From: Candidatus Kuenenia stuttgartensis
GTDB lineage: Bacteria > Pseudomonadota > Alphaproteobacteria > SMXS01
Reading direction: 5' to 3'
Assembly (NCBI GenBank): GCA_943329845.2
Contig: CALQFM020000007.1
Span: forward strand, 1-64,000
Length of the DNA: 64,000 bases
Numbering within the stretch: the stretch's first letter is position 1; each line of letters begins with the position of its first letter. The translations under genes and the position numbers were made by a program. Shown one piece after another: positions 18,770 to 31,970 of the stretch. The notes under the pieces are model-generated. The model made no database searches. It had not been told where the DNA came from and saw only the letters and a list, made by a program, of their open reading frames with translations.

Positions 18770-19519
18770 ATGTTAGGGGCTGTTTCGCAGATCGGACGTC
18801 ACGTGCTCGATGCGGTGTTCCCGCCGCAATGCCCCGTCTGTGCGGCCATCGTGCAGGAGCACGCCCAACTCTGTTCCGCGTGCTGGACCCAAATCCGCTT
18901 CATCGGCGCACCGCACTGTAGCTGTTGCGGCGTGCCGCTGGAGTTCGACGTGGGCGGCGATGCGCTCTGCCTGCAATGCCTGACCGACCGCCCGGCATTC
19001 GACCGGGCGCGCGCCGTGATGCTGTACGACGATTTCAGCCGCGGGCTGGTGCTGAAGTTCAAGCATGGCGACCGGCTCGACCCGGCGGCGGTGTTCGCCC
19101 GCTGGATGGCGCGGGCCGGCCGCGAACTGCTCGACGGCGCCGACATCATCGCGCCGGTGCCGCTGCACTGGACCCGGCTGCTGTCGCGCCGCTACAACCA
19201 GTCGGCCATCCTCGCCCGCCATATCGCCAAGGCCGGAGGGCCGGCGTTCGTTCCCGACCTGCTCACCCGCACCCGCCGCACGCCCAGCCAGGGCGCCCTG
19301 AGCCGGAAGGAGCGGTCCAGCAACGTCCGGGGAGCCTTCGCCGTGTCAGAGCGTTACCAGGACACTCTGAAGGGACGCCGCATTGTTCTGGTCGATGACG
19401 TGCTGACCACGTGCGCCACCGCCGGACATTGCGCCCGGGCGCTGCGCAAGGCCGGCGCCGAACGCGTGGACGTGTTGACACTGGCGCGTGTTGCGTTGCC
19501 GGATCAGGCGGCTATATAG
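18770..19519 (+). CDS. comF: ComF family protein (phosphoribosyltransferase fold)
   Basis: 249 residues. The N-terminus has a double zinc-ribbon-like Cys pattern (FPPQCPVCAAIV, CSACW, CSCCGVPLE, CLQCL), followed by a type I PRTase domain with the PRPP-binding motif RIVLVDDVLTTCATAGHCARAL. ComF proteins are linked to DNA uptake in competent bacteria, but most alphaproteobacterial copies are called from homology only. It is divergent from the methyltransferase and followed after 23 bp by grxC. No other competence gene lies in the window. Confidence 0.88.
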   Translation: MLGAVSQIGRHVLDAVFPPQCPVCAAIVQEHAQLCSACWTQIRFIGAPHCSCCGVPLEFDVGGDALCLQCLTDRPAFDRARAVMLYDDFSRGLVLKFKHGDRLDPAAVFARWMARAGRELLDGADIIAPVPLHWTRLLSRRYNQSAILARHIAKAGGPAFVPDLLTRTRRTPSQGALSRKERSSNVRGAFAVSERYQDTLKGRRIVLVDDVLTTCATAGHCARALRKAGAERVDVLTLARVALPDQAAI

Positions 19520-19542
19520 GGGAAACGGACCAGGAGTTGCCC

Positions 19543-19800
19543 ATGGCTGATATCGTCATCTACACCTCGGCGTTCTGCGGCTATTGCGCCCGCGCCAAGC
19601 GGCTGTTGAAGGAAAAGGGCGCCGAATTCAACGAGATCGGCGTCGACATGAATCCATCGCTTCGCGAGGAGATGATGGCGAAGGCTGGCGGCCGATACAC
19701 GGTGCCGCAGATTTTCATCAACGGCCGGCATGTGGGCGGCTGCGACGACCTTCACGAACTCGACGCCCGCGGCGAGCTCGACAAGCTGCTGGCCGCCTGA
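19543..19800 (+). CDS. grxC: Glutaredoxin 3
   Basis: 85 residues from ATG 19543 with CAGGAG upstream. The dithiol active site CGYC is in YTSAFCGYCARAKRLL at residues 11-14; the glutathione-binding TVPQIFINGRHVGGCDDLHEL segment follows. It reduces protein disulfides and glutathione mixed disulfides in the cytoplasm. Its TGA overlaps the ATG of the Nit1-like amidase (TGATG), coupling two glutathione-related functions. Confidence 0.95.
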   Translation: MADIVIYTSAFCGYCARAKRLLKEKGAEFNEIGVDMNPSLREEMMAKAGGRYTVPQIFINGRHVGGCDDLHELDARGELDKLLAA

Positions 19801-20627
19801 TGGGTTCGCCCTTCAACCTCGCCCTGGTGCAGACCAATTCGGGCAACCAGGTCGCCCCGAACGTCACCATCGTCAGCGAGATGATCCGCGAAGCCCGGAG
19901 CGGTGGCGCGGACCTGGTCATGCTGCCGGAGACGGTGTCGCTGATGGAGACCCGCTCCAAGCTGGTCTTCGAGCAGGTGAAGCCGCAGGACGAAGACGAA
20001 GCCCTCAAAGATTTCAGGGCTTTGGCGGACGAACTTGGCATCTGGCTTCACACAGGGTCGCTGCCCATCAGGCTATCCGACACCAAGATCGCCAACCGAT
20101 CCTTCCTGATCGATCCGTCTGGCGCCATCAAAGCGACCTACGACAAGATCCACATGTTCGACGTGGATCTGCCCGGCGGCGAATCCTACCGGGAATCGAA
20201 GAACTATCAGCCGGGCGAGCGCGCCGTGCTGGCCGACCTGCCGTGGGGCAAGCTGGGCCTGACGATCTGCTACGACCTGCGCTTCCCGCATCTCTACCGG
20301 GCGCTGGCCAAGGCGGGCGCCGACTTCATCTGCGTGCCTGCCGCGTTTACCAAAGTGACCGGCCAGGCGCACTGGCATGTGCTGCTGCGCGCCCGCGCCA
20401 TCGAGACCGGCTGCTTCGTGTTCGCCGCCGCTCAGACCGGCACCCACCAGAACGGCCGCCAGACCTTCGGCCATTCGCTGATCATCGACCCGTGGGGCGA
20501 GATCATCGCCGACGGCGGCGAGGAGGTCGGCCTCATCAACGCCCGCATCGACCCGGCAAAGGTGGCCGAGGCCCGCGGCCGGGTGCCGTCGCTGGAGCAC
20601 GACCGGGAGTTTAGCCCGGTTTCGTGA
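19800..20627 (+). CDS. Carbon-nitrogen hydrolase, Nit1-like (probable deaminated-glutathione amidase)
   Basis: 275 residues, nitrilase superfamily. The catalytic triad is visible: Glu in DLVMLPETVSL, Lys in YDKIHMFDVDLPGG, Cys in LGLTICYDLRFPHLYR. The sequence around KIHMFDVDLPGG and CYDLRFP is that of Nit1/YbeM-type enzymes, which hydrolyse deaminated glutathione, a side product of transaminases acting on glutathione. The direct coupling to grxC (overlap TGATG) supports a glutathione-repair role. omega-Amidase (Nit2) is the main alternative. Confidence 0.87.
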   Translation: MGSPFNLALVQTNSGNQVAPNVTIVSEMIREARSGGADLVMLPETVSLMETRSKLVFEQVKPQDEDEALKDFRALADELGIWLHTGSLPIRLSDTKIANRSFLIDPSGAIKATYDKIHMFDVDLPGGESYRESKNYQPGERAVLADLPWGKLGLTICYDLRFPHLYRALAKAGADFICVPAAFTKVTGQAHWHVLLRARAIETGCFVFAAAQTGTHQNGRQTFGHSLIIDPWGEIIADGGEEVGLINARIDPAKVAEARGRVPSLEHDREFSPVS

Positions 20628-20653
20628 TATGCTTTCTCGGAGGAGATGAGGGC

Positions 20654-20887
20654 ATGAATGCGAAAGTGAAAGCCTACGTCGAAGCCAAGGTGCGGTCGGG
20701 CGAGTATCCGTCCGACGAAGCTGTCTATAAGGCTGCTATCGAGGCTCTGCAGCGCGAAGAGGCAGCGCTGGAGGAACTTCGTCGTGAGATCGATATCGGA
20801 ATCGCTGATGCCGACGCTGGCCGGTTCTCTGAGCTGAATGCCATCGAGATCGGTGAAATAGCGAAGCGCGAGATGCAGAAACGGTGA
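20654..20887 (+). CDS. parD: ParD-family type II antitoxin
   Basis: 77 residues from ATG 20654 with AGGAGATGAGGG upstream. The N-terminal half reads as a ribbon-helix-helix DNA-binding domain (KVKAYVEAKVRSGEYPSDEAVYKAAIEAL), and the C-terminal half (EEAALEELRREIDIGIADADAGRF) is the toxin-binding tail typical of ParD/CopG-like antitoxins. The length is normal and the frame is intact. It overlaps the GTG of the downstream parE by four bases, as in working ParDE modules, but that toxin gene is interrupted. Confidence 0.88.
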   Translation: MNAKVKAYVEAKVRSGEYPSDEAVYKAAIEALQREEAALEELRREIDIGIADADAGRFSELNAIEIGEIAKREMQKR

Positions 20888-21183
20888 GTTGGGCGTATCG
20901 CCTCACAGCTGCTGCCGAGGCCGACCTCCTGCAAATTTACCAATACTCTGCCGAGCGGTGGGGTGTATCCTAGGCTGACATATATCAGCGCGATCTCCAC
21001 CGGCATCTGTCCAATATTGCGGAAAATCCGTTGATCGGAGTAGCGCTGGCCCACGTCAGACGGAACGTGAGAAAGTACCAGGCCGAAAGCCATGTCATCT
21101 ACTACCGGCCGAAGCGTGAGCAAGTTGAAGTCCTGCGTGTCCTGCACACCCGCCAGGATGCCAGCCGCGCGCTCCTAAGGTAA
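20884..21183 (+). pseudogene. parE: ParE-family toxin interrupted by an in-frame TAG
   Basis: From GTG 20884 the frame reads MSWAYRLTAAAEADLLQIY, a normal RelE/ParE opening, then hits TAG at 20971-20973 (codon 30). Read through the TAG the same frame runs uninterrupted to TAA at 21181-21183 and gives a full 99-codon ParE with ADIYQRDLHRHLSNIAENPLIG, VRKYQAESHVIYYRP and VLRVLHTRQDASRALL, all typical of the family. The position of the TAG is commonly Gln in ParE (a CAG to TAG transition would explain it). Everything else is intact, so inactivation looks recent. A sequencing error or suppression cannot be excluded from sequence alone. Confidence 0.88.
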
Positions 21184-21714
21184 TTAACCCGGCTTCACCG
21201 CGCAGATGTGCTGGATGATCGCCGGCTTGTGGAAATCGGTGTAGGCCTGCTCGTATCCCACCACCTGCCAGTCGCTGAACCAGTCCATCAGCTCGCCATC
21301 GCGCAGAAGGAAATCCGGGTTGCTGGGCTTGCCGTATTGTTCGTTACCGACGGCGAAGGTCTCGTAGATCAGCACGCCGCCGGGCGCGACCGCGTCGCGC
21401 AGGCGCGGTAACAGCAGCCGCCACAGGTAGTTGGTGACGATCACGCCGCCGAACTGGGCGTTGCCCAGCGGCCAGGGGCCGTTTTCCAGGTCCGCCTCCA
21501 GTACCGCCAGGCCCGGATGGCCGGACAGGTCGTCGAGGCCCGAGATATTGAGGTCTACTGCCATCACCCGGTAGCCGTGTTCCAGCAGGAAGCGGGTATG
21601 CCGGCCGGAACCCGACGCCAGATCGAGGACGTCCGCGCCCGGCGCGATGCGGCCGATATGCTCGGTGACCCACCGGCTGGGCTTGGTCGGTTTCTGATGG
21701 CTGTCGCTGCTCAT
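21184..21714 (-). CDS. SAM-dependent methyltransferase (TehB-like)
   Basis: 176 residues, a short class I methyltransferase. Motif I is VLDLASGSGRHTRFLLEHG, the acidic strand AVDLNISGL, motif II FGGVIVTNYLWRLLLPRLRDAVAPGGVLIYETFA. The pattern and small size resemble the TehB/tellurite-resistance group and SAM methyltransferases annotated next to small housekeeping genes; the substrate is unknown. It ends immediately next to the parE stop on the other strand (no spacer), suggesting the TA module was placed or survives in a very tight slot. Confidence 0.82.
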   Translation of the reverse strand: MSSDSHQKPTKPSRWVTEHIGRIAPGADVLDLASGSGRHTRFLLEHGYRVMAVDLNISGLDDLSGHPGLAVLEADLENGPWPLGNAQFGGVIVTNYLWRLLLPRLRDAVAPGGVLIYETFAVGNEQYGKPSNPDFLLRDGELMDWFSDWQVVGYEQAYTDFHKPAIIQHICAVKPG

Positions 21715-30873: not shown

Positions 30874-31970
30874 TGGCCGGGTTTTCCCAGGAGCGGGTCA
30901 AGCAGCTCATCGACCGCTTCGAGGGAATCGAGGCGCAGATGGCCAACTCGGCCGACATGTCGGGCGACGCCTATGCCAAGCTGTCCCGCGAATATTCGGA
31001 GCTGACCGAGGTGGTGGTCGGCGCGCGCGAGCTACGCCGCATTCGCCAGGAGATCGAGTCCCTGGCCGACATGGCGAAGGACCCGGACAGCGACGCCGAG
31101 ATGAAGGCGCTCGCCGAGGAAGAGCTGCGCGAGCTCAACAATCGCCTGCCCGAGGTCGAGCGCGACCTGCAGCTTCGCCTGCTGCCCAAGGACGCCGACG
31201 ACGACAAGGACGTCATCCTGGAAATCCGCGCCGGGACCGGCGGCGACGAGGCGGCGCTGTTCGCCGGCGACCTGTTCCGCATGTATCAGCGCCATGCCGA
31301 CAATCATGGCTGGAAGATCGAGCTGATGTCGGCCAGTGAATCGAGCGTCGGCGGCTACAAGGAAATCATCGTCTCGGTGAACGGCAAGAACGTCTATGCG
31401 CGGCTGAAATTCGAATCCGGCGTCCACCGGGTCCAGCGCGTGCCGGTCACCGAAGCGGGCGGTCGCATCCACACCTCGGCGGCAACCGTCGCCGTCCTGC
31501 CGGAAGCCGAGGAAGTCGATATCGTCATCGAGGACAAGGACATCCGCATCGACGTGTTCCGCGCCTCGGGCGCCGGCGGCCAGCACGTCAACACCACGGA
31601 AAGCGCCGTGCGCATCACCCATTTGCCGACCGGCATCGTGGTGTCGCAGCAGGACGAGAAATCGCAGCACAAGAACAAGGCCAAGGCGCTGAAGATCCTG
31701 CGCGCCCGGCTCTATGACCACGAGCGCGCGCAGCTCGATGCCGAGCGCTCGGACGCGCGTCGCACCCAGGTCGGCAGCGGCGACCGGTCCGAGCGCATCC
31801 GCACCTACAACTTCCCGCAGAACCGCATCACCGACCACCGCATCAACCTGACCCTCTATAAGCTGGACCTGATCATGCAGGGGCAGGGGCTCGACGAGCT
31901 CATCGATGCGCTGATCTCCGAGGACCAGGCCGAACGGCTCGCGGCCATGGAGACGGCCGGAGATTTCTGA
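30873..31970 (+). CDS. prfA: Peptide chain release factor 1
   Basis: 365 residues. RF1 ends translation at UAA and UAG. The P-x-T stop-codon recognition motif appears as PVT in [18 protein letters not shown], which distinguishes RF1 from RF2 (SPF); the catalytic GGQ is in [19 protein letters not shown]-terminal helical domain 1 spans about 1-105. prmC, which methylates the GGQ glutamine, follows 17 bp downstream, the standard pairing. Confidence 0.98.

What the first reader, a model, noticed from the sequence alone, without database searches (positions are those of the whole stretch)
20884..21183. ParE toxin killed by one TAG while ParD and the rest of the toxin frame stay intact
The toxin frame is open over 99 codons apart from TAG at codon 30, where Gln is usual. 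The antitoxin start, overlap and ribosome binding site are kept. This looks like a recent loss of the toxin, leaving an antitoxin that could still neutralise other ParE toxins (anti-addiction) or repress its own promoter.
Basis: seen in the sequence. Interest (0 to 1): 0.55.

Follow-up and report, generated by a model that had tools for sequence, protein, structure and literature searches.

The report
Disarmed ParDE toxin, antitoxin kept
A bacterial toxin-antitoxin gene pair has lost its toxin through a single premature stop codon while the antitoxin gene stays intact, and a sister species lost the toxin at the same chromosomal spot through a different stop; this is ordinary decay of such pairs, made more interesting by the repetition.

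Summary
The frame 20884-21183 is a ParE toxin (Pfam PF05016, 61.6 bits across the stop) interrupted once, by TAG at 20971-20973 (codon 30). parD (20654-20887) is intact.

TAG is a normal stop here: RF1 is intact, none of 41 tRNAs found reads a stop codon, and TAG ends 85 of 257 long ORFs sampled.

The loss is repeated. The module lies between a nitrilase-like gene and a methyltransferase in 3 of 10 family genomes; the slot is empty in 7. In sister species G002 the toxin has a different internal TAG (codon 80). G004 has no stop, but Thr where 30 of 30 homologues have L/I/V/A. A paralogous toxin in the window's genome has TAA at codon 21. parD is open each time. The parDE core was also exchanged between species (G000-G004: 18/527 differences, flanks 150/1353).

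I read it as a decaying type II module whose toxin is lost first. Self-repression is unlikely (26 bp upstream, ParD short at the DNA-binding strand). Anti-addiction is possible but unsupported: no plasmid match to this ParD; best listed plasmid ParE 46% identical.

The parts
19543..19800 (+). glutaredoxin-like gene, upstream in the likely operon
   Evidence: ORF; found next to the nitrilase-like gene in 10 of 10 family genomes; name from recall, no family search run on it
19800..20627 (+). nitrilase-like (carbon-nitrogen hydrolase) gene; left border of the slot
   Evidence: name from recall, no family search run on it
20639..20643 (+). ribosome-binding site GGAGG of parD
   Evidence: GGAGG in G000 and G004, GAGGAG in G002
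20654..20887 (+). parD antitoxin, open, 77 aa, N-terminal strand residues missing
   Evidence: Pfam PF03693 E 4.9e-4, NCBIfam TIGR02606 E 3.6e-10, alignment
20884..21183 (+). parE toxin frame, pseudogene, 99 codons plus stop
20971..20973 (+). in-frame TAG, codon 30
21184..21714 (-). methyltransferase-like gene, tail to tail with parE; right border of the slot
   Evidence: found with nit in 10 of 10 family genomes; name from recall, no family search run on it
30891..31952 (+). match to prfA (release factor 1), no internal stop: TAG is read as stop
   Evidence: 514.8 bits against a cut-off of 423.25

Best explanation
It is a decaying chromosomal type II toxin-antitoxin module of the ParDE family. 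The module was inserted between a nitrilase-like gene and a methyltransferase in an ancestor of three sampled species (or reached them by exchange), with parD probably read from the upstream glutaredoxin-nitrilase operon. The toxin is then disarmed independently in different lineages by single stop codons: codon 30 here, codon 80 in G002, codon 21 in the paralogue on contig C3. Loss should run in this order because a cell can lose the toxin freely but not the antitoxin first. The window shows the stage after toxin death and before antitoxin decay. Shown: the stops, the open antitoxins, the shared slot, the normal code. Inferred: that the truncated toxins are inactive, that parD is translated, the order of loss, and that parD is now mostly a passive leftover.
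For: The stop falls inside the ParE domain with family match on both sides. RF1 intact; 41 of 41 tRNAs above the Rfam cut-off have no stop-reading anticodon; TAG ends 85 of 257 ORFs of 200 aa or more in 402,888 bases. Same slot occupied in 3 and empty in 7 of 10 family genomes. Different internal stop in the G002 copy; TAA in the C3 paralogue; parD open in all four copies. Between G000 and G004 ParD shows 5 synonymous and 1 nonsynonymous change (P 0.003 against neutral), ParE 4 and 6 plus the stop (P 0.21, compatible with neutral). Removing only 10 C-terminal residues abolished toxicity of an M. tuberculosis ParE (PMC4906023, passages), so loss of 70 of 99 or 20 of 99 residues should too. A review names nonsense mutations as a mode of decay of chromosomal TA systems (PMC7167474, passage).
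Against: ParD has few changes, which hints at constraint rather than passive decay; but the comparison spans time before the loss and a sister copy without a stop, so it cannot prove selection after the loss. The ParD/ParE contrast alone is not significant (Fisher P 0.13-0.15). The excess of broken ParE copies in the genus is weak and includes the copy that was chosen for being broken (P 0.024 or 0.079). One genome per species; no read data; tRNAs outside the assembled contigs cannot be seen (no tRNA-Ile with GAU was among those found).
Confidence: 0.72

Rival explanations
1. Anti-addiction: the antitoxin is kept by selection because it neutralises ParE toxins of incoming plasmids or phages, and the toxin is shed as a cost. 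The repeated disarming in one genus would be selection for a toxin-free antitoxin.
For: Toxin lost independently at the same slot in two of three species and again in a paralogue, ParD open each time; ParD dN/dS 0.06 between G000 and G004; the model is shown for ccdEch against F-plasmid ccd (PMC2654758, passage); an antitoxin without the DNA-binding domain still adopts the toxin-bound form (PaaA2, PMC8251345 passage).
Against: No plasmid match to this ParD at E 1e-3 (72,556 records); 450 plasmid records match the G004 toxin, all under 60% identity, best listed 46%; no phage match to that toxin at E 1e-3 (ParD was not searched in phages). ParD-ParE pairs are insulated: three residues can switch partner (PMC7354431 passage). 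Plasmids of this genus are probably poorly sampled.
Confidence: 0.15
2. Assembly or sequencing error in this one genome; the toxin is intact.
For: Single substitution, single assembly of 107 contigs, no reads available.
Against: A different stop in the orthologue of another genome and one in a paralogue make real toxin loss the common pattern here; ParE also differs from the G004 copy by six nonsynonymous changes.
Confidence: 0.07
3. The stop is read through or suppressed at low level, giving a trace of full-length toxin.
For: The frame after the stop is still open for 69 codons and family-like.
Against: RF1 present, no suppressor among 41 tRNAs, TAG common as terminator; the stop is at different codons in G000 and G002 and absent in G004, so it is not a conserved recoding site.
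Confidence: 0.04
4. ParD is kept as a transcriptional repressor of its own operon (not exclusive of the others).
For: ParD family antitoxins are usually autorepressors (recalled).
Against: 26 bp between nitrilase stop and parD ATG, no sigma-70-like site in 19500-21300, and the three ParDs of this slot, of 17 aligned, lack the N-terminal strand residues (a fourth is partly short) that insert into DNA in this fold (PMC8251345 passage).
Confidence: 0.04

Closest known systems
Caulobacter crescentus parDE locus with a parE pseudogene and an orphan ParD (cited in PMC7354431 section 4.2, read)
   Same: ParD antitoxin beside a dead parE in an alphaproteobacterium
   Different: Here the same slot is compared across species and shows a second, independent stop and core allele exchange
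ccdO157 decay in Escherichia coli (Mine et al. 2009; paper not held; seen only as cited)
   Same: Chromosomal TA islet that degenerates
   Different: Different toxin family (CcdB, recalled), within one species
Orphan antitoxins of Klebsiella (PMC7192599 passages) and E. coli (PMC10790755 passages)
   Same: Abundant antitoxins without a working toxin, many in the context of the original pair
   Different: Large surveys; the passages I saw give no account of single stops in one slot across species
PaaA2-ParE2 of E. coli (PMC8251345 passage)
   Same: Antitoxin without a complete DNA-binding domain
   Different: PaaA2 lacks the whole N-terminal domain; here only the first strand residues are missing, and the toxin is interrupted

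Membership tests
ParE toxin (PF05016) | Domain match above the curated cut-off | tested here: met
   61.6 bits against 23, over the stop; the piece after the stop alone 39.9 bits. NCBIfam: no family for the frame with X at the stop
ParE toxin (PF05016) | Complete translated domain | tested here: not met
   TAG at codon 30, normal code: a ParE pseudogene, not a ParE toxin
ParE toxin (PF05016) | Toxicity, gyrase inhibition | not testable with these tools
   needs expression
ParD antitoxin (PF03693 / TIGR02606) | Family match | tested here: inconclusive
   20.9 bits against 21 (Pfam) and 39.7 against 46.2 (TIGR02606): under both cut-offs, with E 4.9e-4 and 3.6e-10; the genome search with PF03693 gave 0 matches at E 0.001
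ParD antitoxin (PF03693 / TIGR02606) | N-terminal ribbon strand for DNA binding | tested here: not met
   residues missing in 3 of 17 aligned ParDs, the three of this slot; L042 partly short (15 of the 42 loci plus window and C3, starts chosen by me). Predicted monomer folds were uninformative: the longer control was also modelled as helix from residue 2
Type II toxin-antitoxin module | Antitoxin-toxin order with overlapping genes | tested here: met
   GTG of parE overlaps TGA of parD
Type II toxin-antitoxin module | Both genes open | tested here: not met
   toxin interrupted
Anti-addiction antitoxin | Neutralises toxins of mobile elements | not testable with these tools
   proxy only: no close plasmid or phage pair found
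Stop-codon recoding | Suppressor tRNA or loss of RF1, TAG rare as terminator | tested here: not met

The most novel reading that the evidence does not exclude
The nitrilase-methyltransferase slot is a disarmed immunity locus: parDE cores are swapped into it between species by recombination, and selection in this genus repeatedly removes the toxin (stops at codon 30 and codon 80, perhaps a core missense in G004) while keeping a non-DNA-binding ParD, expressed from a housekeeping operon, as a stand-alone antidote.
Probability: 0.1. Interest if true: 0.55.

Novelty: new member of a known kind. Interest (0 to 1): 0.3.

Why it matters
Dead toxins beside live antitoxins are known, but what holds the antitoxin afterwards is open. 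A fixed slot with empty, disarmed (two ways) and uninterrupted versions in closely related species is a small natural series in which passive lag and selection for the antidote can be told apart once more strains are sequenced.

Tried and rejected
Recoding of TAG: suggested at first by TAG at positions where relatives have sense codons in two species; rejected by RF1, tRNAs and TAG usage.

A genome-wide base rate of interrupted genes from codon usage: the score did not separate (ParE site rank 156 of 2838), so no base rate is claimed. Rate in the genus: one search lists 38 ParE-like places, 7 of them with one stop; in 3 of these 7 (G090:C9, G103:C3, G002:C4) the stop is at the usual C-terminal end, so they are not counted as broken. 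That leaves 3 of 10 places in the genus with a clear internal stop against 0 or 1 (G088:C33, near the end, borderline) of 22 inspected outside it; P 0.024 or 0.079. Six of the 38 places, all outside the genus and listed without stops, were not inspected. The window copy was chosen because it is broken, so the contrast is weaker than these values.

ParD fold: AlphaFold2 gave three helices and no strand, but a homologue with the longer N-terminus gave the same, so this test decides nothing.

GTG 20624 as an earlier parD start: the ten codons 20624-20653 differ between G000 and G004 by two amino acids while the remaining 77 differ by one, and GGAGG precedes the ATG: unlikely. Repeats of 10 bases or more in 20550-21300: none. 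Defence library: no match for ParD; a weak one (DpdE, E 0.003) for the G004 toxin, not followed. The methyltransferase row for G002 and the G002 stop rows came from a wrong offset; I use, and (ParE alignment), instead.

Full report
What is there. The frame 20884-21183 begins with GTG overlapping the parD stop and runs 99 codons to TAA, with one internal stop, TAG at 20971-20973, codon 30. It scores 61.6 bits to Pfam ParE_toxin across the stop, and both pieces match the family in order, the first weakly; NCBIfam gave no family for it with X at the stop. Of the 38 ParE-like places found in 22 of 116 genomes (window's own included) I aligned 32; the stop column holds Gln in 22 of the 30 rows other than the window and its G004 sister. 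parD (20654-20887) is open and complete, with family scores just under the curated cut-offs (the genome search with PF03693 found 0). By sequence the closest solved relative of the G004 toxin is ParE1 of 8c24 (E 4.5e-18); for ParD it is 7b22 (E 0.0097).

The code is normal. The same window carries a complete prfA match (RF1). All 41 tRNA genes of the genome above the Rfam cut-off were typed, one in the window and 40 in fetched stretches, and none reads a stop codon; the 42nd, sub-threshold match gave no tRNA. No tRNA-Ile with GAU was among them, so the assembly misses some tRNAs. TAG ends 85 of 257 ORFs of at least 200 aa in 402,888 bases.

The slot. In 10 of 10 family genomes searched, glutaredoxin-, nitrilase- and methyltransferase-like genes lie in this order. 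parDE sits between the last two in G000 (window), G002 and G004 only; in the other 7 the slot is empty. The left junction is nearly the same and the right one similar in the three occupied slots, so the insertion is the same event or was copied with its borders. G004:C43 and CAMBYA010000043.1 share length 11,386, and G002:C1 and JALHLV010000001.1 share length 317,913, so these are very likely the same metagenome-assembled genomes; their public labels (Rhizobium sp. Q54, Sphingomonadales) disagree although genome search puts both in one genus.

Repeated loss. The G002 copy has a TAG at a different codon (80 in the window's numbering) and an open ParD. G004 has no stop, but Thr at a column where 30 of 30 others have L, I, V or A; whether that toxin works is unknown. 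A paralogous pair on contig C3 of the window's genome (ParE 38/92 identical) has TAA at codon 21 and an open ParD. So three copies of this family in one genus have an interrupted toxin, each by a different stop, with the antitoxin open each time. Of the other three ParE matches in the genome, two (C25, C29) have open frames but only 22 of 87 and 23 of 91 residues identical to this ParE, and one (C39) is weak.

Allele exchange. Flanking genes of the three species are about equally distant (dS 0.25-0.43), but the parDE core differs at 18/527 positions between G000 and G004 (nit plus methyltransferase 150/1353, P 2e-8) and at 194/527 between G000 and G002 (135/1353, P 4e-39), with more similar ends. 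Third codon positions show the same (10/176 and 98/176), so I read it as exchange of whole cores, not only relaxed constraint.

Selection. Between G000 and G004, ParD has 5 synonymous and 1 nonsynonymous change (P 0.003 against neutral), ParE 4 and 6 plus the stop (P 0.21). This shows constraint on ParD over a period that may include time with a live toxin; it does not show that ParD is still selected now. The direct contrast of the two genes is not significant (P 0.13-0.15).

The antitoxin. From its ATG, ParD lacks the five to six residues that precede the first helix in most homologues; the three ParDs of this slot lack them among 17 aligned, and L042 is partly short (15 of the 42 loci were used, with starts chosen by me). 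In this fold the strand inserts into DNA (PMC8251345, passages). Only 26 bp separate the upstream stop and this ATG, and no sigma-70-like site was found in 19500-21300 (other promoter types are not covered). I infer expression from the upstream operon and no autorepression. Structure prediction did not help.

Anti-addiction. ParD had no plasmid match at E 1e-3 and the G004 toxin no phage match at E 1e-3; 450 plasmid records hold relatives of that toxin, all under 60% identity, best listed 46%. The reading stays possible, not supported.

What is known. The review PMC7354431 (section 4.2 read) reports a parE pseudogene beside an orphan ParD in Caulobacter crescentus, and surveys in Klebsiella (PMC7192599, passages) and E. 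coli (PMC10790755, passages) find many orphan antitoxins. PMC7167474 (passage) names nonsense mutations as a mode of decay of chromosomal TA systems. Five paper searches, each showing only the top 10 to 25 of 52 to 360 papers of an open-licence library, listed no title on this slot; that is weak evidence of absence.

Verdict. A real, ordinary toxin loss in a decaying ParDE module, notable for being repeated in one genus and for the core exchange in one slot.

Noticed in passing
L006 846-1384 (G000 contig C3, minus strand): Second ParDE pair with an open ParD and a ParE stopped by TAA at codon 21, between a glyoxalase II-like gene and a reductase-like gene (names from recall).
   Followed up: partly
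window 20654-21183, L147, L148: The parDE core appears exchanged between species while flanks and ends stay alike.
   Followed up: partly
L148 / L085 1208-1504: The uninterrupted sister toxin has Thr at a column that is L, I, V or A in 30 of 30 others; it may be weakened too.
   Followed up: partly
L154 (G009): The methyltransferase orthologue is reported with one in-frame TAA; not examined.
   Followed up: no
L040, L041: Public labels of two metagenome-assembled genomes of one genus disagree (Rhizobium sp. Q54 and Sphingomonadales bacterium).
   Followed up: no
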